Below are positions 46,212 to 61,522 of a stretch of DNA of 64,000 bases, piece after piece. Under the pieces are notes generated by a model. The model did no database searches. It had not been told where the DNA came from and worked only from the letters and a program-made list of their open reading frames with translations. The first letter of the stretch is position 1. Each line of letters starts with the position of its first letter. Where the stretch lies: IMG/VR virus record IMGVR_UViG_3300045256_000135, positions 1 through 64,000 of that record. One strand, 5' to 3'. The DNA is from a virus. The translations under genes and the position numbers were made by a program.

Positions 46212-46283
46212 TCTGGTGTAGCTCAGTGGAAGAGCAATCGGCTGTTAACCGATCGGTCGTAGGTTCGACCCCTACCACCAGAG
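46212..46283 (+). tRNA. tRNA-Asn (anticodon GTT)
   Basis: The cloverleaf closes. Acceptor TCTGGTG pairs with CACCAGA, the D arm is GCTC/GAGC, the anticodon loop is CTGTTAA and the T arm is GTAGG-TTCGACC-CCTAC. CCA is not encoded. Confidence 0.92.
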
Positions 46284-46288
46284 CAAAT

Positions 46289-46362
<74 letters not shown>

Positions 46363-46373
46363 CGGAGGACTTT

Positions 46374-46748
46374 ATGGACGAAACTCTTCGTAAACCTTAC
46401 GACCAGCGTCTGTCGTACATTGCTGGTCTGAAAGATGGATGGTTCAAAGAAGGGGAGGGTCGTGCACCTTCTCTGGCAGCCATTGCGTATGCTCGAGCGC
46501 TGCTTGATCGGCTCAACCTGAACACCAATTTCGGTGTTTACCCCATGGGCGATGGTGGTATCCAGTTCGAATTACACTCAACCAAGTGTGTGATCTCACT
46601 TGAGATCCCCTACTCCGCAGATTCCGAGCACGCTCAGATCAATGTGGCTATGTCATCCGCTGATGTTGATGTCGAAGTCAGAGTCAAGGTACAGGCTATT
46701 GATCGGGTGGCGAAGTGGTGGGAGCGCTTGTCGATTGTCCAGGAGTAA
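46374..46748 (+). CDS. protein of unknown function
   Basis: A 124-residue protein that starts 11 bases after tRNA-Arg with GGAGG 7 bases before ATG. Helical N-terminus and beta-rich C-terminus. Unrecognised. Confidence 0.65.
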   Translation: MDETLRKPYDQRLSYIAGLKDGWFKEGEGRAPSLAAIAYARALLDRLNLNTNFGVYPMGDGGIQFELHSTKCVISLEIPYSADSEHAQINVAMSSADVDVEVRVKVQAIDRVAKWWERLSIVQE

Positions 46749-46751
46749 GTA

Positions 46752-47264
46752 ATGAAATCGGTCTACGTTGCAGCTCGGTCGAAAGAGTTGGTTCGTGCTA
46801 AGGAAGTGATGCGTGGTCTCGAAAAGATCGGGTTTAGCATCACGTTTGACTGGACAGAAGAGATTCTGAAAAACCGTGCAAAATACGGGAAGTTCGAAAC
46901 TACTCCCGAGCGCGTGCACAGGGCAAACGCTAGACAAGATGTGTTAGGTGTGCTCAGGGCGTCAACTCTCGTGCTACTTCTTCCGCAGACGCCTGAGAAT
47001 CTACCGGTCTATGAGACGACCCCAGGTAGTTGGGTGGAGCTTGGAGTCAAGATCGGGCAGATGTACGAAGCTCGACCGTTTGGTGGTAGCAATTTCCGTG
47101 AACAATCTCTTCGCTGGTCAGATGTAAAGAGCCTGAGTCCGTATCAGATTCTGATCAGTGGACCTGACCCGAAGTCGATTTTCACATCGTTTTCAACCAA
47201 GAAACGGTTCGCAACAGATGCGGCGCTCATCAAGCACCTTGACAGACTCGAGCGTGGCCAATGA
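46752..47264 (+). CDS. nucleoside 2-deoxyribosyltransferase-like protein
   Basis: 170 residues. V-Y-V-A-A-R-S at the N-terminus, F-D-W-T near 35, an R-x-D pair near 58-62, S-T-L-V-L-L-L-P near 70 and G-S-W-V-E-L-G near 92 follow the order of the deoxyribosyltransferase/DUF4406 fold. These proteins act on N-glycosidic bonds of nucleosides or nucleotides. It overlaps the SLOG gene by 4 bases. Confidence 0.65.
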   Translation: MKSVYVAARSKELVRAKEVMRGLEKIGFSITFDWTEEILKNRAKYGKFETTPERVHRANARQDVLGVLRASTLVLLLPQTPENLPVYETTPGSWVELGVKIGQMYEARPFGGSNFREQSLRWSDVKSLSPYQILISGPDPKSIFTSFSTKKRFATDAALIKHLDRLERGQ

Positions 47265-47662
47265 AGGTTGTGGTCGGCGGAGGTCGAACCTTTGGTGACG
47301 AACGGAACCCGTCCGGTGGTCTGACTGACAAGGCTATCAATGAACGAGCTTTGCTGAAGCAGACGCTGGATCAGATTCATCGAGAGACACCAATCACATT
47401 GCTGATCCACGGTGGAGCTATGGGTGCTGATCACCACGCAGTACAGTGGGCGATGGAACGAAACGTACCACGCAAAGAGTTCCCTGCTAATTGGTTGATT
47501 GGACGTCAAGCTGGCCCAATCCGCAACCGCAGGATGATTCGCGAAGGCCAACCTGATTTGGTAGTGGTGTTCCCAGGTGGTACGGGAACTGCTCATCTGA
47601 CGAATGAGGCAAAACTAGCATCGGTTCCCGTTCAAACTGTACTAAGCACCGGAGAAGGCTGA
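47261..47662 (+). CDS. SLOG-fold protein (DUF2493 / YspA-like)
   Basis: 133 residues. V-V-V-G-G-G-R-T at the start, H-G-G-A-M-G-A-D near 46, a basic P-I-R-N-R-R-M near 84 and V-V-F-P-G-G-T-G-T near 99 are the conserved loops of SLOG proteins. The family binds or cleaves nucleotide-derived ligands. The 4-base overlap with the deoxyribosyltransferase-like gene suggests a shared substrate. Confidence 0.75.
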   Translation: MKVVVGGGRTFGDERNPSGGLTDKAINERALLKQTLDQIHRETPITLLIHGGAMGADHHAVQWAMERNVPRKEFPANWLIGRQAGPIRNRRMIREGQPDLVVVFPGGTGTAHLTNEAKLASVPVQTVLSTGEG

Positions 47663-48009
47663 TGGTGACAAAGAGGGTGCTTGACGACTTGAAGCTCATT
47701 CGTGAGCAAGCCCATGGTGGTGTTGCAAGGTGGGCTGATTATACGTCTTTGTCGGATGCGCTGTTACCTCAGTTGATACAAGCAGCGCAAGAGTTGCTTG
47801 ATCTTAAAGCCGCTACGCAACTCTGTCCCCAACACAAACCTTCCGGCGGCTACATTGCGCGATGCCTGGTTTGCACGGTAACAGAACAACATCGGGCGCT
47901 ATCAGCAATTGGATGCATCCTCGAGAAGACTGAGGTGTGTCTGTACGATTTGAGCGGAGATGTGAACGACGTAGTGAAACTGGCATCCGAGAAAGTGAGC
48001 GCACCATGA
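47662..48009 (+). CDS. protein with C..H and C-x2-C site, unknown function
   Basis: A 115-residue protein with Cys/His at C-P-Q-H near 54 and C-L-V-C near 68, a possible metal site between two helical parts. It overlaps the next gene by 4 bases. Confidence 0.55.
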   Translation: MVTKRVLDDLKLIREQAHGGVARWADYTSLSDALLPQLIQAAQELLDLKAATQLCPQHKPSGGYIARCLVCTVTEQHRALSAIGCILEKTEVCLYDLSGDVNDVVKLASEKVSAP

Positions 48010-48212
48010 CTGACGCTGAACGAGAAGCAGAGACTAAGCGGATTGCCCTAGGCCTTCGAGCTAAGGATCCGAAGCTGGCTGAGATCTGGTTTTGGTCTTT
48101 CACACCTTTGCCAATTGGCTTGCCAAGCGACGAACAGCTGGAAGAGGGTAGGCAGCTGCTCAGTGGCGAACTGACTCTTGCCCAACTTTCCGAGAAGCAT
48201 CCGGGGGTTTAA
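48006..48212 (+). CDS. small protein of unknown function
   Basis: 68 residues, basic N-terminal helix and an acidic C-terminal helix. Unrecognised. Confidence 0.5.
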   Translation: MTDAEREAETKRIALGLRAKDPKLAEIWFWSFTPLPIGLPSDEQLEEGRQLLSGELTLAQLSEKHPGV

Positions 48213-48213
48213 C

Positions 48214-48411
48214 GTGGCAGTTGCATGCGAAATCTGCAAAGCTGGGTTGGACATTCACGAAGATGCTGGCTATGGTTATGCAAGTGCTCAGGAACTTCCA
48301 ACGCATCTCTGCGATAGATGCAGAAAGAATGTATCCTCGGGCATTCGAAAGATTGTGGAATGCTTGAAGCGTTCCAACGAAGTTGTTCGCGCCGATAGCT
48401 CCAACGGTTAG
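48214..48411 (+). CDS. small zinc-binding protein whose end overlaps tRNA-Ile
   Basis: 65 residues from a GTG. C-E-I-C near 5-8 and C-D-R-C near 33-36 form a ribbon. Its last 23 bases lie inside the tRNA-Ile gene, so tRNA maturation would cut this mRNA. Confidence 0.55.
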   Translation: MAVACEICKAGLDIHEDAGYGYASAQELPTHLCDRCRKNVSSGIRKIVECLKRSNEVVRADSSNG

Positions 48412-48462
48412 AGCAAAGGCCTTATAAGCCTGAGGTTGCTGGTTCAAGTCCAGCTCGGCGTA
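48389..48462 (+). tRNA. tRNA-Ile (anticodon TAT, reads AUA)
   Basis: Acceptor GCGCCGA/TCGGCGT (one G-U pair), D arm GCTC/GAGC, anticodon loop CTTATAA, T arm GCTGG-TTCAAGT-CCAGC. The top pair of the anticodon stem is mismatched (A and G). The anticodon reads AUA directly, without needing lysidine. Confidence 0.85.
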
Positions 48463-48503
48463 CTATGGTGTTGACAGTAGTTCCACGATCTTTGCTCAGA
48501 TCC

Positions 48504-48531
48504 TTGATTTTTGGATGGTCATTATTATGAT
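48504..48531 (+). promoter_or_regulatory. repeated phage promoter, copy 6 (leaderless)
   Basis: TTGATT (48504-48509), 16 bases, TATGAT (48526-48531), 6 bases, ATG 48538. Confidence 0.85.
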
Positions 48532-48537
48532 CATTGT

Positions 48538-48723
48538 ATGGAAGCCAAAGTAGCAAAGATCATTTCGGAGTTGGAGAGCAACGCTGATAGCAAGCTCCGA
48601 GATGTTGGAGCAAAGCTTCGAGAGCTCTACGCAATGGCTCCGTTCACTGCTTACGAACTCCGAGATATCGCGAAGCAGATGCTGATCGAGGCACGGGCCA
48701 AAGAGGCGAAAACTACGACCTAG
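48538..48723 (+). CDS. small helical protein, leaderless start
   Basis: 61 residues, almost entirely helical and charged. First gene after promoter copy 6. Unrecognised. Confidence 0.6.
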   Translation: MEAKVAKIISELESNADSKLRDVGAKLRELYAMAPFTAYELRDIAKQMLIEARAKEAKTTT

Positions 48724-48738
48724 CGAAGGGGGCGAGAG

Positions 48739-48975
48739 ATGACAATGGATGAATCGATTCGAGCTGTTGCTGAGGCGTTTCCTGGAGCAGAGATCCACCT
48801 CTGCTATAGCGGAAAGCAGTTTCAGGTATCTATCATTGTCGGACCGTTTCTAGTGCTTGGTTCGGGTGCAAGTCTAGCGGATGCTATGAACTGCGCTCTC
48901 GACGACGCTCGTCGGACTAAGTGGTGGACTGGTACACCGGCGGTTTTGAGGTTGCGGAAAGCGAAGGTAGCATGA
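48739..48975 (+). CDS. small protein of unknown function
   Basis: 78 residues, alpha/beta, preceded by AAGGGGG. It overlaps the next gene by 4 bases. Confidence 0.55.
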   Translation: MTMDESIRAVAEAFPGAEIHLCYSGKQFQVSIIVGPFLVLGSGASLADAMNCALDDARRTKWWTGTPAVLRLRKAKVA

Positions 48976-49322
48976 AGAAGCCACCGAGCAAGGTGTATGT
49001 GGACGTCGCCAATCCCGAGAATCCAGGGTTTGCTTACACAGAGGAGGAGCACTCCCATCCTGCCAACGCCGAACGGCGAGCGTTCCGCGTGCTTTACGTC
49101 CTCGCACCCCGCCCAAAGCGAAAGGTACTTTGTTGGGTGTTGAGGGATAACGATGATGATGAATTCGTCTGCCCTAAGACGGTCTCTGATCGTGGAACCC
49201 ATCCCAACAGAACGTTTGCTTTGCGTTTCCCCACTAAGCACCACGCACGAGAGTATCGTGAAAGTGAAGGCTTCCTCGAAAACATCTGCCCCGAACCCAT
49301 CTATCGTAAGGAGAGTAAGTGA
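48972..49322 (+). CDS. basic protein of unknown function
   Basis: A 116-residue Arg/Lys/Pro-rich protein, beta-rich in the middle. Its stop overlaps the next ATG by one base. Unrecognised. Confidence 0.6.
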   Translation: MKKPPSKVYVDVANPENPGFAYTEEEHSHPANAERRAFRVLYVLAPRPKRKVLCWVLRDNDDDEFVCPKTVSDRGTHPNRTFALRFPTKHHAREYRESEGFLENICPEPIYRKESK

Positions 49323-49585
49323 TGACTCAGAAAATGACTCGAGCTCAGTGGCTAGAAGGGATGAAGTTGGCTAAGACTGCAGTTGCCGAGTGCAGTAAAG
49401 TGATCGAGCAACATCGTCAAAGCAAAGCAATGCTGGAAAACCAGATTTACACTACGGAACAAGCTTTGGCCAAGGCTAAAGAACGCATCGTAGCTCTGGT
49501 GATGTCGGAACCAGCCGAAGACGACGAAGACGACTTGGACAAAGAGCCGGGTCCTCCTGCGGATGACTCGTTCGGGTTTCGTTGA
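49322..49585 (+). CDS. helical protein with acidic tail
   Basis: 87 residues. A coiled-coil-like helix (20-60) precedes an Asp/Glu-rich tail. A GTG directly before the ATG is an alternative start. Followed by tRNA-Leu. Confidence 0.55.
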   Translation: MTQKMTRAQWLEGMKLAKTAVAECSKVIEQHRQSKAMLENQIYTTEQALAKAKERIVALVMSEPAEDDEDDLDKEPGPPADDSFGFR

Positions 49586-49591
49586 TACAAT

Positions 49592-49677
49592 GGCCCCTTG
49601 GCGGAACAGGCAGACGCAAGGGACTTAAAATCTCTAGTCGAAATGACGTGAGGGTTCAAATCCCTCAGGGGCTACCA
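49592..49677 (+). tRNA. tRNA-Leu (anticodon TAA), CCA encoded
   Basis: Acceptor GGCCCCT/AGGGGCT, D arm GCG/CGC, anticodon loop CTTAAAA, an AGTCGAAATGACGT variable arm and T arm GAGGG-TTCAAAT-CCCTC. ACCA follows at 49674-49677. The last A of CCA is also the A of the next gene's ATG. Confidence 0.92.
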
Positions 49678-49889
49678 TGGAAAAGCAGGTTGATAAACGC
49701 GAGTTTTGGTGGGTTTGGGAGTGGGACCACCAATCGGTAAAGGACTGCCGACTCGATTTCACTTCAGTGTCTAGATGGAGACGAGGGTGGGTGACGCTGT
49801 ACAAGCTCACCACCGAAGGGGACTCACAATGGTGGGTTTACCTCCCGTTTAACATCGGTTTCGGATTTTCTTTCCCAAAGGGCAAATGA
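49677..49889 (+). CDS. Trp-rich protein starting on the tRNA CCA
   Basis: 70 residues with nine Trp and a beta-rich pattern. The start codon shares its A with the end of tRNA-Leu and has no ribosome site. It overlaps the next gene by 4 bases. Confidence 0.55.
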   Translation: MEKQVDKREFWWVWEWDHQSVKDCRLDFTSVSRWRRGWVTLYKLTTEGDSQWWVYLPFNIGFGFSFPKGK

Positions 49890-50089
49890 AGCTTCACATC
49901 ACGTTTTCGATCGAAGTTCCAGATGGCACACGAGTCAGTGACTTTCATCAGATTGTGCAAGAAGCTAAGCAGCTTCTACTTAGAGGGTCGTGGCCACACG
50001 TCGGAGTTGTTCAGGTAAGTAGGGAGCCTCGAGAGTCTGGGGCTAGGGCGATTCAAGATGCATCCTCTCCGCGCATTCAAACTGGCTGA
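49886..50089 (+). CDS. small protein of unknown function
   Basis: 67 residues. A beta strand, helix, beta strand N-terminus precedes a less structured end that overlaps the deaminase gene by 32 bases. Confidence 0.5.
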   Translation: MKLHITFSIEVPDGTRVSDFHQIVQEAKQLLLRGSWPHVGVVQVSREPRESGARAIQDASSPRIQTG

Positions 50090-50396
50090 TGAGCACGTTG
50101 GTAGCCCTGATCAGAGGAACTACCGACTAGCAGCAATTGCCATACGCAAGGACGGGTGCTTAGTAACCGCTCGGAATATCTCGAATTCGAGTCCGACGAT
50201 TGCTTGCCATGCTGAGGGGCGCCTTATGCGTAAGGCTGGAGCAGGCGCTACGGTATTTGTTCTTAGACGCAATCAAAAAGGCTGGGCAAATGCTAGACCT
50301 TGTCCGCGTTGTGAAGCTCTGATGCGGGCTCGAAAGGTTCTTCGGTGCTTCTATACGGTTGGCCCCAACGAATGGGGTTGCATCGAAATGAGGTGA
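50058..50396 (+). CDS. cytidine/deoxycytidylate deaminase-family protein
   Basis: 112 residues. C-H-A-E-G near 49-53 and P-C-P-R-C-E near 80-85 are the zinc and proton-shuttle motifs [HC]-A-E...P-C-x2-C of the deaminase fold. The substrate could be dCMP, cytidine or a base in RNA/DNA. With dCTP deaminase at the window start, a role in dUMP supply is plausible. Confidence 0.75.
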   Translation: MHPLRAFKLADEHVGSPDQRNYRLAAIAIRKDGCLVTARNISNSSPTIACHAEGRLMRKAGAGATVFVLRRNQKGWANARPCPRCEALMRARKVLRCFYTVGPNEWGCIEMR

Positions 50397-50399
50397 ACA

Positions 50400-50765
50400 G
50401 TGTTTAAGCTGACTACGTCCAAGGCTGAGATTACGCAAGACCAACTGCTTGAAACCGCTAGGTTTGCACTGCCAAAGTGGCCAGCTCTTGTGGTTGGCGG
50501 AGAGCGTGTTTCTCGAGAACAGGCACAAGAGATCCTCATTCGAACTGACGACTGGGACCACTTTACAAACGATCACGAATTCCGGTCGCAGATCTTGACG
50601 ACAGTGGGGATTCCGTTTAAGGTTGAGCATGGCCACGTCCAGCCAGATTGGGAGCACATGTTTCGAGCTGGGTTGGTGGTCCAAAAGGGTGGTGCGATTG
50701 GGATGGAAACATTGGTTGCAACACTTACAACATCGGCAAGTACCCTTCAGCAGCTGACGTGCTAG
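50400..50765 (+). CDS. 5' part of a frame-split conserved phage protein
   Basis: A GTG-started frame. Residues 1-96 read normally, but the last 25 are low-quality and Thr-rich. At CAAAAGGGT (50682-50690) a -1 shift moves to the frame of the next entry, giving K-G-W-C-D-W-D-G-N, which is protein-like. Confidence 0.55.
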   Translation: MFKLTTSKAEITQDQLLETARFALPKWPALVVGGERVSREQAQEILIRTDDWDHFTNDHEFRSQILTTVGIPFKVEHGHVQPDWEHMFRAGLVVQKGGAIGMETLVATLTTSASTLQQLTC

Positions 50766-51061
50766 AAGATTGGCTAACTATTGCTGCAGAGTTCCCGTTC
50801 TTGAACCTGTTTGCTCAGCTGTATTCTGGCGAAAGCGGCGAAGACAACATCGAACCAGTGGTGGAATACCTAGTGTCGGAGGGTAGGGTTACGATACAGA
50901 CGCCAGATAAGTCGATCAGTATCAGACACCTCCGCCCTACCTCAACACTCACAGCTGACCTTATGCAAATCTTCGGCAACCCACACCGTGAGCGAGGTGT
51001 TGCTCTCCCAATGCTCAAAGAAGCTGTAGACCTGGTTCGACGTAAGAGAGCAGCTGCATGA
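50648..51061 (+). CDS. 3' part of a frame-split conserved phage protein
   Basis: From about 50684 this frame encodes G-W-C-D-W...N-T-Y-N-I-G-K-Y-P-S...F-P-F-L-N-L-F-A-Q-L, a series I recognise from a common phage family of unknown function. Its first 12 codons overlap the upstream frame and are probably not used as a start. The whole protein would be about 220 residues. Confidence 0.55.
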   Translation: MGAHVSSWVGGPKGWCDWDGNIGCNTYNIGKYPSAADVLEDWLTIAAEFPFLNLFAQLYSGESGEDNIEPVVEYLVSEGRVTIQTPDKSISIRHLRPTSTLTADLMQIFGNPHRERGVALPMLKEAVDLVRRKRAAA

Positions 51062-51696
51062 GCCCTTTGGAGCAAGCAGCTGGTACACTTGGAGCTCTTG
51101 GTGTCACCATGTACTACAAAGCGCTTTCGACGTCAGGTACTGCAACTATACCGAGTACTTGGCATTCAGCAGATTGGCATTCAGCAACTTGGGACATCGA
51201 TCCTCCGACTGGGGAATCAGTTTCAATGTCAGTGCAGCTGGTTGATGACACAGATGGCAACGTGCACGAAGTGTCACCAGTATTTCCAACTGAGATGGAA
51301 AAGGTCACACCAGACTTGATGGTGGTGAACGGTGAGTGGACTCAGCTAGTTGAGTCACTGATAAAGTGGATTTCGTACAACACACCAAAGTTCTCTGGTA
51401 TGGTAACGGCTCGTCTCAAAGCTGACGAGAGGTGGTTTAGTTTCTCTATCGAGCCACCGTATCACGGAGCAACTTTGATCCGGTTCAGGTGGATTGAGGA
51501 GGATGGTGGAGGGTCTCTGCGGGAGCTTCGCGAACTCCCACCTGAAGCTCGATCAGCTTTTGTGGAGTCCATCGACGACTTGATCGAGACTCTGGTCCAA
51601 ACCCACCACGAGCAGGTACAGTCGGGGTTGCTCGCAAACAGTCTGTTGAAGGACAAGATTCAGCAACTAACCATTGGTAAACCTGTCTCCAAATGA
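51058..51696 (+). CDS. protein of unknown function
   Basis: A 212-residue protein. An in-frame 15-base tandem duplication near 51164-51193 gives repeated W-H-S-A units. It is beta-rich to residue 150 with a helical end. Two-part element copy 2 overlaps its stop. It overlaps the upstream gene by 4 bases. Confidence 0.65.
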   Translation: MSPLEQAAGTLGALGVTMYYKALSTSGTATIPSTWHSADWHSATWDIDPPTGESVSMSVQLVDDTDGNVHEVSPVFPTEMEKVTPDLMVVNGEWTQLVESLIKWISYNTPKFSGMVTARLKADERWFSFSIEPPYHGATLIRFRWIEEDGGGSLRELRELPPEARSAFVESIDDLIETLVQTHHEQVQSGLLANSLLKDKIQQLTIGKPVSK

Positions 51697-51730
51697 GTTC
51701 TAGGTGTACGTAGCTATATAGTTAGCTGTG
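51675..51730 (-). promoter_or_regulatory. two-part element, copy 2 (inverted)
   Basis: Read on the minus strand: AACTATATA (complement of 51715-51723), 29 bases, CAGGTTTACCA (complement of 51675-51685). Most of it matches copy 1 base for base. It points back into the upstream + strand gene. Confidence 0.6.
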
Positions 51731-51764
51731 AGAAATCGACATCTGATAGCATTGATCCGACTCC

Positions 51765-51792
51765 TTGATTTCTGATCGATCATCATTATGAT
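51765..51792 (+). promoter_or_regulatory. repeated phage promoter, copy 7 (leaderless)
   Basis: TTGATT (51765-51770), 16 bases, TATGAT (51787-51792), 6 bases, ATG 51799. Confidence 0.85.
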
Positions 51793-51798
51793 CATTGT

Positions 51799-51978
51799 AT
51801 GAGCGATCCAAAAGTGAAGTGCCGGATCTGCAAAAACGAAACCCCGTGGTCTCAGTGGTTGTACGTTGGCGAGCAACCATCTGCGGATGACGGATTCAAA
51901 CTCGTTCTGAAGAACTGTCCGAAATGTCCAGACGGGCGCTCCAACACTCAGTCTATGACGGTGGTTGATGAGAACTAA
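51799..51978 (+). CDS. 59-residue zinc-ribbon protein, leaderless start
   Basis: C-R-I-C near residues 8-11 and C-P-K-C near 40-43, with a Trp-rich loop between, form a complete ribbon. It overlaps the next gene by 11 bases. The promoter places the transcript start at the ATG. Confidence 0.65.
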   Translation: MSDPKVKCRICKNETPWSQWLYVGEQPSADDGFKLVLKNCPKCPDGRSNTQSMTVVDEN

Positions 51979-53590
51979 GACCAGCTCGTTGCTCGAGAAG
52001 TATCTTCCGTCGTCCTCGCCCTTTTCGACTTCGTCAGTTCTGAACCCAACCCCAGGTGCAGCAGCAGTATACGCACCGGCATCAGAACGCGAATCCGAAT
52101 TGTCGCTCAAAGATCGCATGCTTCAAGTCATGCGAGTTCGACACCCAATGGGCATCTCGATCAAGATCAAAGGAAGCGCGGAAGAAAGTCAAGAAACGTT
52201 TGAAGGGTATTTCCCACCACCCACTTGGGAGCTGAAAGAGACTCCGATGCAGGTGGTGATGTCGACGATCAATTCAGTCATTGAGCGTCACCCTGTACCG
52301 AAACAGAAAACTCATGCACCAATTGCTGAAGAGATGCAGCTGGTACGTGAGATCTTAGACTGGATGGATGCAACCAACGCTAAGATCAATGTTCATCAGC
52401 TGCATTCGTTCACACTCTTCAAGGACATGTTCATTGAAGCAATCGCGAAGCGATCGAAGGAACCAAACACGGATCTTGATCGTGCTCTTCGTTTTTGCTC
52501 AGACGAAGTTTGGCAGGTAGTTCAGGATGCTGAGTGGCAGTCTGACATCACGCCGTTGGTCATTCGTCAGAATCCAGAGACCACTCTGTTTAGCCGAACG
52601 GTTCTGACAGGGTACTTGCATCAACGCATCTGTCTGGACGTTATGTCCAAGGCTGCTCATGACGCTAAGGAAAACAGATCAGCCAAGCCTCAAGTAACAC
52701 AGCCTGAATTGCCTGAAGACAAGTGGTTGATGCAGTATGGTTCAAGGCTCTGGTCTCGAGTTCACCGTGATCAAATGCGACTGATCGATGCTGTCCATCA
52801 GGAGAGTCATACGTCACCAGACGACCCACAGTTCAGGTTCGTTAAGCTTGTTTCGGGTTTCGCGTATCAGTGGGCTGACTCAGCCTTCCAGAAGCTGGTT
52901 ACAAGCCACACTTTCGCCGCAGCGCTGATGTCAACTAAGGTTGATGCAGAGTCCATCGAAGATCTGCAGCTACAGTGGAAAGCGTTCATGGTGGTCCTAC
53001 CAGAGAAGTTGGTTGATCACTGGGACCGACTGTACTTCTGGATTACTGGTGACGGCGGACAAGAACCATTCACCTATCACTTACTGGTGAGGGCTCAGAA
53101 CCATGAAGACGGATCGGTGTTAGTTAGCGGAAGCAACGTAGCTGAGTTGTTCAACGAGGCCGAAGAGATCGAACCCGTTGGCGAACTGTCGATCGCTCCT
53201 TATCATCAACGAGTGGTTCTACTTGCTAAGCGATTGATTGTTGGTTTGCTTCTGACCATGCAGAACACCAACAACTTCAAGAACAAAGAGTACGGTGGAC
53301 GAAACGCGGAGAAGGGTGAGCCACGTGGTGAGCCTAACCATCGAGTCTGCATGATCGGTAGGGCGATCAAAGTGGACTGTCGTCCAGCGATTCGGAAGTT
53401 TCTGGTTGGCACTGATCGACGCGGAAAGAGAGAAGTCGCTCCGCCATCAGTGCAGGTTCTGGTCCGTGGACACTACAAACGGCAAGTGCTTGGCGTTGGT
53501 CGGAAGCAGCGCAAAGTGATTTGGATCGAACCGTACTGGCGTGGACCCGAAGACGCTCCAATTCTCACTCGACCGAAGGAGTTTTCCTGA
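51968..53590 (+). CDS. large conserved phage protein of unknown function
   Basis: A 540-residue protein with a mostly helical body. The C-terminal 60 residues carry V-R-G-H-Y-K-R-Q-V-L-G-V-G-R and I-W-I-E-P-Y-W-R-G-P, a basic/aromatic motif that I recall from several unrelated phage and plasmid proteins of unknown role. No ATPase or nuclease motif seen. Confidence 0.65.
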   Translation: MRTKTSSLLEKYLPSSSPFSTSSVLNPTPGAAAVYAPASERESELSLKDRMLQVMRVRHPMGISIKIKGSAEESQETFEGYFPPPTWELKETPMQVVMSTINSVIERHPVPKQKTHAPIAEEMQLVREILDWMDATNAKINVHQLHSFTLFKDMFIEAIAKRSKEPNTDLDRALRFCSDEVWQVVQDAEWQSDITPLVIRQNPETTLFSRTVLTGYLHQRICLDVMSKAAHDAKENRSAKPQVTQPELPEDKWLMQYGSRLWSRVHRDQMRLIDAVHQESHTSPDDPQFRFVKLVSGFAYQWADSAFQKLVTSHTFAAALMSTKVDAESIEDLQLQWKAFMVVLPEKLVDHWDRLYFWITGDGGQEPFTYHLLVRAQNHEDGSVLVSGSNVAELFNEAEEIEPVGELSIAPYHQRVVLLAKRLIVGLLLTMQNTNNFKNKEYGGRNAEKGEPRGEPNHRVCMIGRAIKVDCRPAIRKFLVGTDRRGKREVAPPSVQVLVRGHYKRQVLGVGRKQRKVIWIEPYWRGPEDAPILTRPKEFS

Positions 53591-53782
53591 TGAAAGTTAG
53601 CATTTACGTTACCATCGCACCCAACGCCGATCGGCCTTATGTCACAACTTTTCCGCCTCCAGAAGACCTTGCGGAACATCGCAAGCAACTTGGGATTCGT
53701 GTGTTTTAGGGTTGACGCTGATCTTCCAGTGTCTGCTACGGACGTGGTTACTGTCCAGCCAAAAGCGGTGGAACCGATCTGA
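53590..53782 (+). CDS. small conserved phage protein split by a +1 frame change
   Basis: The ATG frame ends at a TAG at 53707-53709, right after a TTTT run (53704-53707). Skipping one T continues as R-V-D-A-D-L-P-V-S-A-T-D and ends at 53782, giving a plausible 63-residue protein. Start overlaps the previous stop. Confidence 0.5.
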
Positions 53783-53813
53783 GAAGATCGAGTATTTTCA
53801 TTAGAATAGAGGT

Positions 53814-54041
53814 ATGTCGTACTCTATTCCGCCCGGTATCTCTTTGCGTGACATGCAAGAAGCAACCGAGCAGGCTTTGAAGGACGGAAACATTGCAGCA
53901 GTCCTCGCGTTCCTGCACGCTAGATTGATGTTGTTGGAAGACACACCAACCCGCCCTGGTTTCACCCCACAACGGAAGCCTACTCCACCCGGGTTCTATC
54001 GGGTGCTCCTTGAAGACTTGAAGAAGGACACAGACAAATGA
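53814..54041 (+). CDS. small protein of unknown function
   Basis: 75 residues, helical with a Pro-rich end. TAGAAT lies exactly 6 bases before its ATG, the geometry of the leaderless promoters, but no -35 box is visible. An AGAGG may serve as ribosome site. Confidence 0.55.
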   Translation: MSYSIPPGISLRDMQEATEQALKDGNIAAVLAFLHARLMLLEDTPTRPGFTPQRKPTPPGFYRVLLEDLKKDTDK

Positions 54042-54460
54042 GTGATGGGCCCGTTTCAACAAAGTTTGCAATTGGCGCTGAAGTCTTTTGGTTGAAGTTT
54101 CATGAGATAACGCCGTACCGATCACTTGCGGGGTTCTTGGGAGAGGTGGTTGGCGTACGCGAGTCTCCGGAAGGGTTTCTGTACGATGTGGAGTTCTGGA
54201 ACGGCGAGTTGGTCAGGGACATTGCAGAGCACTGGTTGTCCCCTAACGATGACGAGATCAATCCTTGTGATACGCAGTGCTCGGCATGCAAGTATCTGGT
54301 GATCGACCAGGCACAGTTTCGCAGTTGTTCGGAATGCAGCTCTGACATCTGTGTTGAGTGTGGCCTGTTCTCAGGAGACCGAGATGACTGGCTTTGTGAC
54401 GAGTGCTTTGCAAAAGAAACTCAGCCAGCACCCTTGATTTCCGACTCCACATCATTATGA
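54038..54460 (+). CDS. zinc-binding protein with cross-brace-like Cys pattern
   Basis: 140 residues. A beta-rich first 80 residues precede C-S-A-C, C-S-E-C, C-V-E-C and C-D-E-C pairs between about 82 and 125, like RING/ZZ-type cross-braced fingers. The gene reads through promoter copy 8, and its TGA stop is part of the -10 box. Confidence 0.6.
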   Translation: MSDGPVSTKFAIGAEVFWLKFHEITPYRSLAGFLGEVVGVRESPEGFLYDVEFWNGELVRDIAEHWLSPNDDEINPCDTQCSACKYLVIDQAQFRSCSECSSDICVECGLFSGDRDDWLCDECFAKETQPAPLISDSTSL

Positions 54461-54461
54461 T
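54434..54461 (+). promoter_or_regulatory. repeated phage promoter, copy 8 (leaderless)
   Basis: TTGATT (54434-54439), 16 bases, TATGAT (54456-54461), 6 bases, ATG 54468. It overlaps the end of the upstream gene. Confidence 0.85.
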
Positions 54462-54467
54462 CATTGT

Positions 54468-55115
54468 ATGGATGAATACACACTACTCGGCTATGAAGGG
54501 TACTGGGACCCGAGAAAGCATCTGACGTGGGGAGCTGCGGCATACTCACACAATGGGATGCTTGTGAATGGCATCTCGAGGCTCACATCACCTCTCGACT
54601 TCTTCGAGGGAGGCTGCGACAAACGTGTAATCCAGAAGGTACTCAAGCAGCCAATCCATGCTCCTCTCTACTCGGTGGTGCAAATGTCCCATCTGATCAA
54701 GTGGGAGCTGCTCGCCTCTCTCCCACCGGATGGTCACGTTGATAACACTTGCTACCGATTGGAGACCGAGAACAGTGGTGCTTTGATCGGTTGTGGATCA
54801 CAGTCGGCTTTCAACAGTTGGCGAGCAGTTGCGATCAGTAGGATGCTGGAGAGGGTTGACCTGGCAGTGTTTGATCCGATCCCGACTGAGCTCAAGCTCT
54901 CTGAAGCTAAAGCCCGAATCGAATCAGCGTTGACTCTTAGCGTACATGATCCTCACGCTAGGGCATACGCTCACGTATTCTTCAAACTCAGTCGCAGGCA
55001 TAGTGTCGCCATGCTGCGCGGAGATCTGAAGGCAGCCGAAGCTGAGTTTGATCGCACTGTGGATCAGTTGGAGAAGCGCTTGGTAAGGAAGCGCCTTTCG
55101 CTCCTTGATCTCTGA
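54468..55115 (+). CDS. protein of unknown function, leaderless start
   Basis: A 215-residue protein with an aromatic N-terminal half and a helical, basic C-terminal half. No motif recognised. Its stop lies just after the -35 box of promoter copy 9. Confidence 0.65.
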   Translation: MDEYTLLGYEGYWDPRKHLTWGAAAYSHNGMLVNGISRLTSPLDFFEGGCDKRVIQKVLKQPIHAPLYSVVQMSHLIKWELLASLPPDGHVDNTCYRLETENSGALIGCGSQSAFNSWRAVAISRMLERVDLAVFDPIPTELKLSEAKARIESALTLSVHDPHARAYAHVFFKLSRRHSVAMLRGDLKAAEAEFDRTVDQLEKRLVRKRLSLLDL

Positions 55116-55132
55116 ATCATCATTATTATGAT
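55105..55132 (+). promoter_or_regulatory. repeated phage promoter, copy 9 (leaderless)
   Basis: TTGATC (55105-55110), 16 bases, TATGAT (55127-55132), 6 bases, ATG 55139. Confidence 0.83.
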
Positions 55133-55138
55133 CATTGT

Positions 55139-55414
55139 ATGACGACCTGGATTTTCGAATCGGAGTTTCGGTATCGTGGACGGATGTACGAAGTCAAGAT
55201 TTCCGACGCTCCCGAGAACGTTGGGATCATCGGTCTGGTTCGTGATGGAGACAATCGCGGAGTCCGCGCCCTGTTTCGCAAAATGCACCACGATGACGTG
55301 GAGAGCGGATGCAGAGTGGTTGGTAGTCAGACGTTGATCGTTGAGCGTCCAGACGGAGTTGACGTCAAGTTGTTGGAAGCTGCTCAGAAGCTCTGTCTGG
55401 GTTGGCCACAGTAG
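55139..55414 (+). CDS. protein of unknown function, leaderless start
   Basis: 91 residues, beta-rich then helical. Single gene between promoter copy 9 and tRNA-Ser. Confidence 0.62.
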   Translation: MTTWIFESEFRYRGRMYEVKISDAPENVGIIGLVRDGDNRGVRALFRKMHHDDVESGCRVVGSQTLIVERPDGVDVKLLEAAQKLCLGWPQ

Positions 55415-55428
55415 GTAAATGATCGTAG

Positions 55429-55513
55429 GGAAGGTTGGCCGAGTGGTTTAAGGCAGCGGTTTTGAAAACCGCCGTTGGGCAACCAACCGGGGGTTCGAAT
55501 CCCTCACCTTCCG
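55429..55513 (+). tRNA. tRNA-Ser (anticodon TGA)
   Basis: Acceptor GGAAGGT/ACCTTCC, anticodon stem GCGGT/ACCGC with loop TTTGAAA, long variable arm (CGTTGGGCAACCAACCG) and T arm with TTCGAAT. It reads UCA. Confidence 0.93.
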
Positions 55514-55517
55514 CGAA

Positions 55518-58801: not shown

Positions 58802-58969
58802 ATGATTCCCTCAAGAAAGCGTGCTCTGCGTCGAGAGTGGTTTCGAATCGCCAGTGGGTATAATTCGAACATGTACTCACGTGCTGATCGTAAACTGATC
58901 AATCGACGCAGAGCACGGAGGGATTCCGCAAGACGTATGCGTAGACGCCAGAATCAGAGGATGGGATGA
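58802..58969 (+). CDS. 55-residue Arg-rich peptide
   Basis: About 20 of the 55 residues are Arg. The ATG is 5 bases after the VWA stop, and the ATGA overlap with nusG supports translation. A nucleic-acid or RNA-polymerase binding role is a guess from charge alone. Confidence 0.6.
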   Translation: MIPSRKRALRREWFRIASGYNSNMYSRADRKLINRRRARRDSARRMRRRQNQRMG

Positions 58970-59601
58970 ATACTACAGCACCAGTGAAGAAGCCACGAAA
59001 GAAGTCGAATCTTCCGCCCGAGCTAGCTCCCGTAGATCCGTCTTCGGTCTGGAGGTGGTACTGTGTTGTCACTGGTTCTGCGTCTGAGGGCAAGGTTGTA
59101 CTCAGACTTCGAAAGTATCTCGAGCTGATGGGAATGCAGAGTGCAGTTAAGGCTACGCTTATACCCATCGGATTCATTCCAGTGATAGATGCTAAGGGTG
59201 TCAGAGAGATCAAGAGGGAGCGTTTGTTTGCAGGCTACTTGTTTCTGCTAGCCAAGATGACTCCATCTCTGAGAGACTTGGTTCTGTCGATTGAGTCAGT
59301 GTCACAGTTCATCTGCGATTCGAATGATCGCTTGTTGCACATTCCTGACAGGCAGATGGAACAGATTCTGGTTAGCATGATGCAAGCAACCAACCCGACA
59401 GCAGCGAAACCTAAGTTTGCAAAAGCCTCAGCAGTTGCTATCACTGGTGGTGGATTCCAGAACTTCCACGGAACGGTAGTCGATCATGTTGGCGACAAGG
59501 TTTCGGTAAGCGTAAGCATCTTCGGACGAAAGACCACAGTAGTCTTCCATGAAAACATGGTAGTGCCAGCAAAGCAAGAAGATTTCTCTAGTACTCCTTG
59601 A
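58966..59601 (+). CDS. nusG: NusG-like transcription factor
   Basis: A 211-residue protein. After a basic/Pro-rich first 28 residues, W-Y-C-V-V-T-G...K-R-E-R-L-F-A-G-Y-L-F fits the NusG N-terminal domain that binds RNA polymerase. From about 150, V-A-I-T-G-G-G-F-Q-N-F-H-G-T-V and V-S-I-F-G-R-K-T form the KOW domain. It could act as a pausing or antitermination factor. Its TGA stop lies within the -35 box of promoter copy 10. Confidence 0.82.
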   Translation: MNTTAPVKKPRKKSNLPPELAPVDPSSVWRWYCVVTGSASEGKVVLRLRKYLELMGMQSAVKATLIPIGFIPVIDAKGVREIKRERLFAGYLFLLAKMTPSLRDLVLSIESVSQFICDSNDRLLHIPDRQMEQILVSMMQATNPTAAKPKFAKASAVAITGGGFQNFHGTVVDHVGDKVSVSVSIFGRKTTVVFHENMVVPAKQEDFSSTP

Positions 59602-59625
59602 TTTCTCTACAAGCATCATTATGAT
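59598..59625 (+). promoter_or_regulatory. repeated phage promoter, copy 10 (with leader)
   Basis: TTGATT (59598-59603), 16 bases, TATGAT (59620-59625), then a leader with AAGGAGG before ATG 59650. Confidence 0.78.
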
Positions 59626-59649: not shown

Positions 59650-59817
59650 ATGATCTCCAACAAAAAGCTGATCGCTGAGAAGGACAAGCTGATCGCTGAT
59701 TTTCTGGCAACGAAGGCTGGTTGGGTTGCTCTCGGAGCTGACCCTGCCCTCTTCGACGAACAGATCAACAAGCTTCAAACCGAGCGAGCACAGCTCACAT
59801 CGAAGATTGGCAAGTGA
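59650..59817 (+). CDS. 55-residue helical protein
   Basis: Strong AAGGAGG ribosome site. Two amphipathic helices with a short repeat (K-L-I-A-E-K-D-K-L-I-A-D). First gene after promoter copy 10. Confidence 0.65.
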   Translation: MISNKKLIAEKDKLIADFLATKAGWVALGADPALFDEQINKLQTERAQLTSKIGK

Positions 59818-59822
59818 AGACA

Positions 59823-59978
59823 ATGAGCAAGCTTCAAAGGAAGATCCGTCGGGAGCGGAAGATGGATGCGTGGCTGGAACGCCGTGCCACCCGATCGAAG
59901 TTTGCTCGGAAGCAGTTCGAGAAGGAGAACGGCCGGGCTCCCCGACCTGATGCTCTCAGTGAGGCGTCGAAGAAGTGA
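59823..59978 (+). CDS. 51-residue basic helical protein
   Basis: A Lys/Arg-rich amphipathic helix makes up most of the protein. It overlaps the next GTG by 4 bases. Confidence 0.55.
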   Translation: MSKLQRKIRRERKMDAWLERRATRSKFARKQFEKENGRAPRPDALSEASKK

Positions 59979-60157
59979 AAAAGACTCTGGTAGACCTTAC
60001 TTGGATTCGTCGGCAACCGGAAACAGCTACATTCTTTGTTCCCGACGTCACTGCCGCGCCTGTCAAAAAGCTAGTAGCCATTTTCCATGCTACCAACGGG
60101 CGTCTGGTATTTATCGAACAAGATCAACTCAGGAGAATCGATTATGGCAACGCGTAA
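59975..60157 (+). CDS. small protein of unknown function
   Basis: 60 residues from a GTG, beta-rich, overlapping the next gene by 14 bases. Unrecognised. Confidence 0.55.
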   Translation: MKKTLVDLTWIRRQPETATFFVPDVTAAPVKKLVAIFHATNGRLVFIEQDQLRRIDYGNA

Positions 60158-60479
60158 GAAGACGGTTAAGCGCACTGTGAAGCGGGTTCAGAAGACGCGG
60201 AAGCCCGCGCGGGTGAAGGAGCAGGTGATCTGGAAGCTCAGTGGTCACGGAAACCATGAACTCCCGAAGGGGTACAAGATCCTGTTTGGCAAGGACCGAA
60301 GCGGGACTCCCAAGGTCTGGGCTTTGGTCGATCCCACTGCCAAGAAGGTGACGGTCGAGTTGCGGGTGATTCGGACGGGAGCTCCCTTTCCGAAGGGGTT
60401 CGAGTACGTCGGTAGCTACGATTCGTCGCCGACGTCCCACATCCTCGTCGGTCCTGCCAGCAACCACTCCGAAGACTGA
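60144..60479 (+). CDS. basic protein with histone-like N-terminal tail
   Basis: A 111-residue protein whose first 26 residues are almost all Lys, Arg and Thr. A compact beta-rich domain follows (about 27-100). It may bind nucleic acid. Its stop overlaps the first paired base of the RNA structure that follows. Confidence 0.6.
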   Translation: MATRKKTVKRTVKRVQKTRKPARVKEQVIWKLSGHGNHELPKGYKILFGKDRSGTPKVWALVDPTAKKVTVELRVIRTGAPFPKGFEYVGSYDSSPTSHILVGPASNHSED

Positions 60480-60603
60480 CTTCAGCTAGCTCTCATTGAG
60501 AGCGGACAACCACGAACTGCCGTGGAGCTGAAGTCGCAGTAGAGACATTTGACTCGGTGTCTCCGGTTCCTCCTCTGATACGGCGAAGAGATCAGAGGAG
60601 GAA
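60478..60603 (+). ncRNA. structured RNA: three-way junction plus two hairpins
   Basis: Stem 1 pairs 60478-60487 with 60526-60535 (10 perfect pairs). Inside are hairpin 60489-60503 (six pairs, three-base loop) and hairpin 60510-60525 (five pairs, six-base loop). A GAGACA/TGTCTC hairpin (60542-60563) follows, then a 13-pair hairpin at 60567-60603. The last could end transcription, although only a weak T run follows. Confidence 0.6.
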
Positions 60604-60879
60604 TTGTTTGCTGCTCTGATCATTGAGGAGGCTAGTGTTTTCGATTTTGGGGTTCGACTGGATGGCGATCAGGAGTCACAACTTAATTAGACCCTGGGAC
60701 CCAAAGCTATCGGCGTAAATCGGTAGTGTACACAGTTCATCAAAGAGAAACCTCTCGCTTACGTAGCAAGAGCAGCCTCGAACCAGCCTGGCCAGCTGGG
60801 TTCTGTGACCAGTCACCATATACTCCCCACTTCAAAGACACTAGTCTCCTCAAGGACCAGAGAAGTTACTTCGAGCTCC
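60604..60879 (+). other. 276-base non-coding stretch
   Basis: No convincing gene in either strand. It contains further hairpins: CTATCG/CGGTAG near 60707-60726, and GAACCAGC paired with GCTGG-GTTC near 60779-60803. Lies between the structured RNA and promoter copy 11. Confidence 0.5.
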
Positions 60880-60907
60880 TTGATTTCTGATCGATCATTA
60901 TTATGAT
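60880..60907 (+). promoter_or_regulatory. repeated phage promoter, copy 11 (leaderless)
   Basis: TTGATT (60880-60885), 16 bases, TATGAT (60902-60907), 6 bases, ATG 60914. Confidence 0.85.
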
Positions 60908-60913
60908 CATTGT

Positions 60914-61522
60914 ATGAGGAACATGGAACACAGACTTTTGGGAATGGGATCTGGTCCGTCCGTTGATAAGCCGTTGGGAGTCAATTGGATTGATCAGAAG
61001 TACACTGGTACGCCTGGTCTGGTCGGAATGACCCTGTGCCCCGGTCGAAAGGGCCACGGTGCTTCCCAAATCCACAATCGCTCGGTCGACGCAGATGTTA
61101 CGACGATGCTGGAAATGGATCCCAAGGTTGATGCCCTCCTTGGTTTGATGGAAGCGTTCGAGTATCGGATGCTTCAGGCGGATACGCTGGCACATAAGTG
61201 TCGGGAGCAGTCGATCGACTATCTCTGGTATCCGATGCCCGATGGGGGCACCCCGCGGGATATGCGATCAGCCAGGTCGGTGGTCAACGCTGTGGTCCAG
61301 AAGCTCCGTTACGGTGAGAACATTGTGATCCACTGCAAGGCGGGTTTGGGTCGAACCGGGCTCCTTGCTAGCTGCATTCTGATTCGCCTCGGCTGGTCTG
61401 CTGAAGACGCGATGCGAATTGTCCGCCAAACTCGAAAGGGTACGATCGAGAACAAGCGCCAAGAGGCCTTCGTCAACGACTTTGGTGGACGTCAGTCCCA
61501 GTTCCGCAACCTGCCGGGTTGA
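60914..61522 (+). CDS. dual-specificity protein phosphatase
   Basis: A 202-residue protein with H-C-K-A-G-L-G-R-T-G at residues 140-149, the C-x5-R phosphatase signature. The nucleophile is Cys141 and the phosphate-binding residue Arg147. Asp110 or Asp116 in the loop before it could be the general acid. The fold should be a CDKN3/DUSP-like phosphatase acting on phosphoproteins, RNA 5' ends or phospholipids. Leaderless start from promoter copy 11. Confidence 0.85.
   Translation: MRNMEHRLLGMGSGPSVDKPLGVNWIDQKYTGTPGLVGMTLCPGRKGHGASQIHNRSVDADVTTMLEMDPKVDALLGLMEAFEYRMLQADTLAHKCREQSIDYLWYPMPDGGTPRDMRSARSVVNAVVQKLRYGENIVIHCKAGLGRTGLLASCILIRLGWSAEDAMRIVRQTRKGTIENKRQEAFVNDFGGRQSQFRNLPG

What the first reader, a model, noticed from the sequence alone, without database searches (positions are those of the whole stretch)
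60478..60879. Structured non-coding RNA candidate upstream of the phosphatase operon
A perfect 10-pair closing stem with two internal hairpins forms a three-way junction. A 6-pair hairpin and a perfect 13-pair hairpin follow. Together with the next 276 non-coding bases, this is the longest gene-free stretch in a very compact genome. It does not match a tRNA, and no known ribozyme core was recognised by eye. It could be a riboregulator, packaging signal, NusG target or a decoy RNA.
Basis: partly seen in the sequence, partly recalled or inferred. Interest (0 to 1): 0.68.

Follow-up and report, generated by a model that had tools for sequence, protein, structure and literature searches.

The report
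Orphan two-domain structured phage RNA
A 400-base gene-free stretch of an uncultivated 183-kb phage genome can fold into two unusually stable, adjoining RNA domains that match no known RNA family; it is probably a functional RNA element, but its job is unknown and no relative was found to prove the fold by covariation.

Summary
The three-way junction (60478-60535), the 6+2-pair hairpin (60542-60563) and the 13-pair hairpin (60567-60603) are real. The "next 276 bases" are structured too: a 28-nt-arm inverted repeat (60614-60641/60835-60862) closes a multibranched second domain. It is the best-scoring inverted repeat found in the 183-kb virus record and its 152-kb relative. The + strand of 60478-60865 folds at -166.9 kcal/mol, z = -8.0 against 300 shuffles. 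60480-60865 is the longest ORF-free gap in the record. No protein remnant, Rfam family, second copy or homologue was found. The one collinear relative (G001) lacks it between NusG and the phosphatase, so covariation could not be tested. A recurrent promoter (16 strict-pattern copies in G000, 11 in G001) sits at 59598, likely driving the upstream small genes plus this RNA, and at 60880, directly downstream, driving the phosphatase. Best reading: a lineage-specific structured RNA at the 3' end of a small operon, acting as 3'-UTR/stable RNA and boundary between transcription units. A DNA element (decayed MITE, packaging or replication site) is a live rival.

The parts
59595..59625 (+). Copy of the phage's recurrent promoter (CTCCTTGATTT...TCATTATGAT) followed by a leader with AAGGAGG; nearest recognised promoter upstream of the RNA
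59650..60479 (+). Small genes 59650-59817, 59814-59978, 59975-60157, 60144-60479 (the last with a DUF7352 match); the UGA stop of the last gene lies at the base of the three-way junction stem
60458..60613 (+). Domain 1 if the outer stem CAGCAA/UUGCUG (60458-60463/60608-60613) forms; that outer stem competes with GCAGUA/UGCUGC (60536-60541/60608-60613)
   Evidence: pair probability 0.9; inferred
60478..60535 (+). Three-way junction: perfect 10-bp closing stem, hairpins 60489-60503 (6 bp) and 60510-60525 (5 bp)
60542..60563 (+). Hairpin, 6 Watson-Crick + 2 G-U pairs
60564..60606 (+). Hairpin with perfect 13-bp core (60567-60579/60591-60603), 16 bp with the G-U extension; no U-run after it
60614..60862 (+). 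Domain 2: 5-bp plus 19-bp closing stem (60614-60618/60858-60862 and 60623-60641/60835-60853) around a multibranched interior
60866..60913 (+). Recurrent promoter module (TTGATT, 16-nt spacer, TATGAT) ending at the ATG of the phosphatase gene; abuts domain 2
60914..61522 (+). Dual-specificity-phosphatase-like gene downstream

Best explanation
A lineage-specific structured non-coding RNA of the phage. Transcription starting at the promoter copy at 59598 runs through four small genes and into two stable, directly adjoining RNA domains (about 60478-60613 and 60614-60862), which end where the next promoter (60880) begins. The most likely working mode is a structured 3' end: the folded domains protect the upstream message or are left behind as a stable RNA, and they separate that unit from the phosphatase-terminase unit. 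Shown: the fold statistics, the absence of a gene, the two promoter-like modules, lack of any detected relative. Inferred: that it is transcribed, that the RNA rather than the DNA is the active form, and the protective or boundary role.
For: Fold stability far beyond shuffles; top-ranked 388-nt window of 560 and top inverted repeat. Longest ORF-free gap of the record, with no protein-family match in nine translated stretches and codon scores near zero. Well-defined pairing, most main helices at probability 0.9 or more. + strand folds more strongly than - (z -8.0 vs -6.4 for the whole; -6.7 vs -5.8 and -5.5 vs -4.7 for the domains). Domain 1 stems hold G-U pairs (2 in 60542-60563, 2 in 60564-60606) that would be A-C mismatches on the other strand. 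Promoter-like modules on the same strand at 59598 and 60880.
Against: No homologue by blastn, nhmmer or single-sequence covariance models, so no covariation. The collinear relative G001 has no matching element. In the long domain-2 repeat, G-U and A-C positions are equally frequent (2 each, counted by hand on the arms), which gives no preference for RNA over DNA. No expression data. Another copy of this promoter (55105) overlaps the end of the preceding gene with no comparable structure before it, so a boundary element is not generally needed.
Confidence: 0.5

Rival explanations
1. A stand-alone trans-acting phage RNA gene (host-factor or defence decoy, or an RNA-only particle) released by processing from the operon transcript or made from its own promoter.
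For: Large size (about 390-405 nt), two compact junction domains that abut at 60613/60614, strong + strand fold. Phages are known to carry large structured RNAs of unknown function such as ROOL and GOLLD (PMC12286853).
Against: No dedicated promoter was found directly before 60478. No tRNA array directly beside it (nearest tRNA-Ser at 55429). No relatives found, whereas ROOL occurs in a wide variety of phages and prophages.
Confidence: 0.25
2. A DNA element: a decayed mobile element whose 41-nt imperfect inverted repeats (60611-60651/60825-60865) are terminal repeats, or a packaging or replication site near the terminase gene.
For: Arms of 41 nt at 78% complementarity, 173 nt apart; absent from the relative; terminase gene about 3 kb downstream; G-U and A-C mismatches equally frequent in the arms.
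Against: No second copy in the genome or in phage, plasmid or E. coli collections. No target-site duplication seen by eye. GC skew stays positive across the site. Domain 1 lies outside the repeat yet is just as structured. + strand folds better than -.
Confidence: 0.17
3. A remnant of decayed coding sequence whose structure is fortuitous.
For: The longest ORF-free gap could be a pseudogene; long hairpins also seem to occur inside coding regions of G001 (32 perfect repeats against 3 expected).
Against: No protein-family match in nine translated stretches; codon scores near zero; fold ranks first of 560 windows; G000 itself has few such hairpins (9 against 3.1).
Confidence: 0.06

Closest known systems
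ROOL RNA
   Same: Large, multi-junction RNA encoded by phages, function unknown (PMC12286853)
   Different: No Rfam match; about 390 nt here; not in a tRNA array; no relatives found; pseudoknots not tested
GOLLD RNA
   Same: Large structured RNA of phages and prophages with no known function (PMC12286853)
   Different: No Rfam match; many GOLLD members exceed 800 nt and have a conserved 3' region, which was not seen here
Bacteriophage T4 stable RNAs C and D (own knowledge)
   Same: Phage-encoded stable RNAs of unknown function
   Different: T4's are made within a tRNA cluster; this element is at the end of a small-gene operon; expression unknown
tmRNA (RF00023)
   Same: A structured RNA of about 360 nt, also encoded by this phage
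   Different: The phage's tmRNA is elsewhere (170542-170901); the element has no tRNA-like domain found by ARAGORN or Rfam
NusG-paralogue (LoaP-type) and put-type antitermination leader RNAs (own knowledge)
   Same: Structured RNA near a NusG-like gene
   Different: Those sit in the leader just after a promoter; here a promoter lies after the structure, and none of this type directly before it

Membership tests
Any Rfam 15 family (incl. ROOL, GOLLD, OLE, tmRNA, group I introns, small ribozymes) | Covariance-model match | tested here: not met
   Whole window at gathering threshold: only five tRNAs; region at E up to 10: only a snoU25 match on the minus strand at 60854-60914, 18 bits against a 50-bit cut-off
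tRNA / tmRNA | ARAGORN-recognisable tRNA or tmRNA domain | tested here: not met
   No call in 60478-60913; the phage's tmRNA is at 170542-170901
ROOL / GOLLD RNAs | Location near tRNA islands (frequent, not universal) | tested here: not met
   Five scattered tRNA genes at 46212-55514; nearest is 5 kb upstream
ROOL / GOLLD RNAs | Homo-oligomeric RNA particle | not testable with these tools
   Needs biochemistry or cryo-EM
Intrinsic transcription terminator | GC-rich hairpin followed by a T run | tested here: not met
   Scan found no + strand terminator in the element; the 13-bp hairpin is followed by TTGTTTGC
Conserved structured RNA | Covariation across relatives | tested here: inconclusive
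   No relatives found
MITE / transposon-end remnant | Multiple copies with terminal inverted repeats and target-site duplication | tested here: not met
   Inverted repeat present, but a single copy and no duplication seen by eye

The most novel reading that the evidence does not exclude
A new class of large phage RNA: two junction domains whose closing helices abut, one of them overlapping the stop codon of the preceding gene, made as a stable trans-acting RNA in infection.
Probability: 0.25. Interest if true: 0.72.

Novelty: new variant of a known kind. Interest (0 to 1): 0.45.

Why it matters
Large structured RNAs in phages are rare and mostly of unknown function. This one has clear module boundaries between two copies of a recurrent, probably leaderless, promoter, so a single RNA-seq experiment or a few closer genomes would settle whether it is a discrete RNA. 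If true it adds an orphan RNA class to a phage lineage for which no cultured close relative was found here.

Tried and rejected
blastn against phages, plasmids and E. coli genomes: no match, or only chance matches of 32-36 nt in plasmids. Viral-contig scans with the phosphatase, the DUF7352 protein and the von Willebrand-type protein alone: no relatives. One scan was wasted on a promoter pattern with wrong spacing (seen); the relaxed, correctly spaced pattern also found nothing. Alignment-based scans found 80 distant loci and 8 terminase loci; among them only G001 is a clear collinear relative. Single-sequence covariance models R1 and R2 matched only the window itself (one chance hit in L072 at E = 9); such models reach only close structural relatives. 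tmRNA, group I intron, ribozyme and 6S-like readings were considered by eye and dropped for lack of any Rfam signal. Terminator reading dropped: no T run. A pseudogene was tested with family scans of translated stretches. Replication-origin reading: no skew change. The gene caller was too strict to define gaps, so one search was used instead. The 388-nt scan reached 560 of 981 windows before its time limit. Literature searches for phage leaderless promoters and T4-like stable RNAs gave nothing usable.

Full report
What is there. The window is the first 64 kb of a 183,244-base virus record. Between the stop codon of a small gene with a DUF7352 match (60144-60479) and the ATG of a dual-specificity-phosphatase-like gene (60914) there is no convincing ORF. 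60480-60865 is the longest stretch of the record without an ORF of 60 aa or more on either strand (386 nt). The short ORFs in it score near zero on codon usage, and nine translated stretches match no Pfam family and only chance-level PHROG hits.

The fold. The 13-pair hairpin is one of only four perfect inverted repeats with arms of 11 or more (loop up to 80) in the window. Folded together, 60478-60865 reaches -166.9 kcal/mol, z = -8.0, on the + strand and z = -6.4 on the - strand (300 shuffles each). Most main helices have pair probability 0.9 or more. An outer stem 60458-60463/60608-60613, whose 5' strand lies in the end of the upstream gene, would close domain 1 flush against domain 2, which starts at 60614; this 6-bp stem could be chance and competes with another pairing.

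Strand evidence. Folding is better on the + strand, the coding strand of the neighbouring genes. The two domain-1 hairpins each contain two G-U pairs. In the domain-2 arms, counted by hand, G-U and A-C positions are two each, so that repeat alone does not say whether RNA or DNA is selected.

Surroundings. A recurrent promoter-like module (CTCCTTGATTT, N, TCATYATTATGATCATTGT) occurs in 16 copies that match a strict pattern, all on the + strand, in this record, and a close variant in 11 copies in the relative G001; further variants exist (for example near 85771). In most copies the next bases are an ATG, at the distance where transcription would start, which suggests leaderless messages; this is inference from sequence. 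One copy lies at 59598, with a leader and AAGGAGG, and is the nearest such module upstream of the RNA. Another lies at 60880 and ends at the phosphatase ATG. Domain 2 ends at about 60865, just where the second module begins.

Relatives. Nothing similar to the RNA was found by blastn, by nhmmer and blastn over fetched loci, or by covariance models built from the single sequence, over fetched loci and 36 phage records. G001 (IMGVR_UViG_3300009553_000019) was found through a shared protein and shared promoters; it is collinear with this phage, with terminases 56% identical. It carries the NusG-like gene, the phosphatase and the terminase in the same order, but its phosphatase follows a Nudix-like gene directly (Nudix named by eye) and no counterpart of the RNA is detectable. 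The element is thus a lineage-specific addition, or has diverged beyond recognition.

Interpretation. A fold of this size in the largest gene-free gap of a compact phage genome argues for function. Position argues for the 3' end of the small operon begun at 59598. I commit to a structured 3' RNA that stabilises or survives from that message and marks the boundary to the phosphatase-terminase unit (0.5). A trans-acting stable RNA (0.25) and a DNA element (0.17) are live rivals. Transcription itself is not shown.

Membership. It belongs to no Rfam family tested and is not the phage's tmRNA, which ARAGORN and Rfam both place at 170542-170901. It resembles ROOL and GOLLD only in being a large structured phage RNA of unknown function.

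Noticed in passing
window 16564, 33093, 34014, 45475, 48504, 51765, 54434, 55105, 59598, 60880; also 141831-149677 of the record and 11 copies in G001: Recurrent promoter-like module TTGATT-N16-TATGAT, mostly followed at once by ATG, all on the + strand; conserved in a relative with terminase only 56% identical. Looks like a phage-wide leaderless promoter.
   Followed up: partly
G000 170542-170901 (L128:9042-9401), outside the window: Phage-encoded tmRNA with tag ANDNVELSEAAEAA*, found by ARAGORN and Rfam.
   Followed up: partly
G001 127.7-132.7 kb (L120:14200-19200): Several ORF-free stretches of 430-600 nt, with direct and long-range inverted repeats, one just upstream of a promoter copy; possible further non-coding RNAs.
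   Followed up: partly
G001, whole record: 32 perfect inverted repeats (arms 11 or more, loop up to 60) against 3 expected, some of them apparently within coding regions.
   Followed up: no
window 58820-58917: Perfect 15-bp inverted repeat with a 68-nt loop between the von Willebrand-type gene and the NusG-like gene.
   Followed up: no
window 51712, record 141774; also 51735 and 85729: Short repeats AGCTATATAGTTAGCT and ATCGACATCTnATAG just upstream of promoter copies.
   Followed up: no
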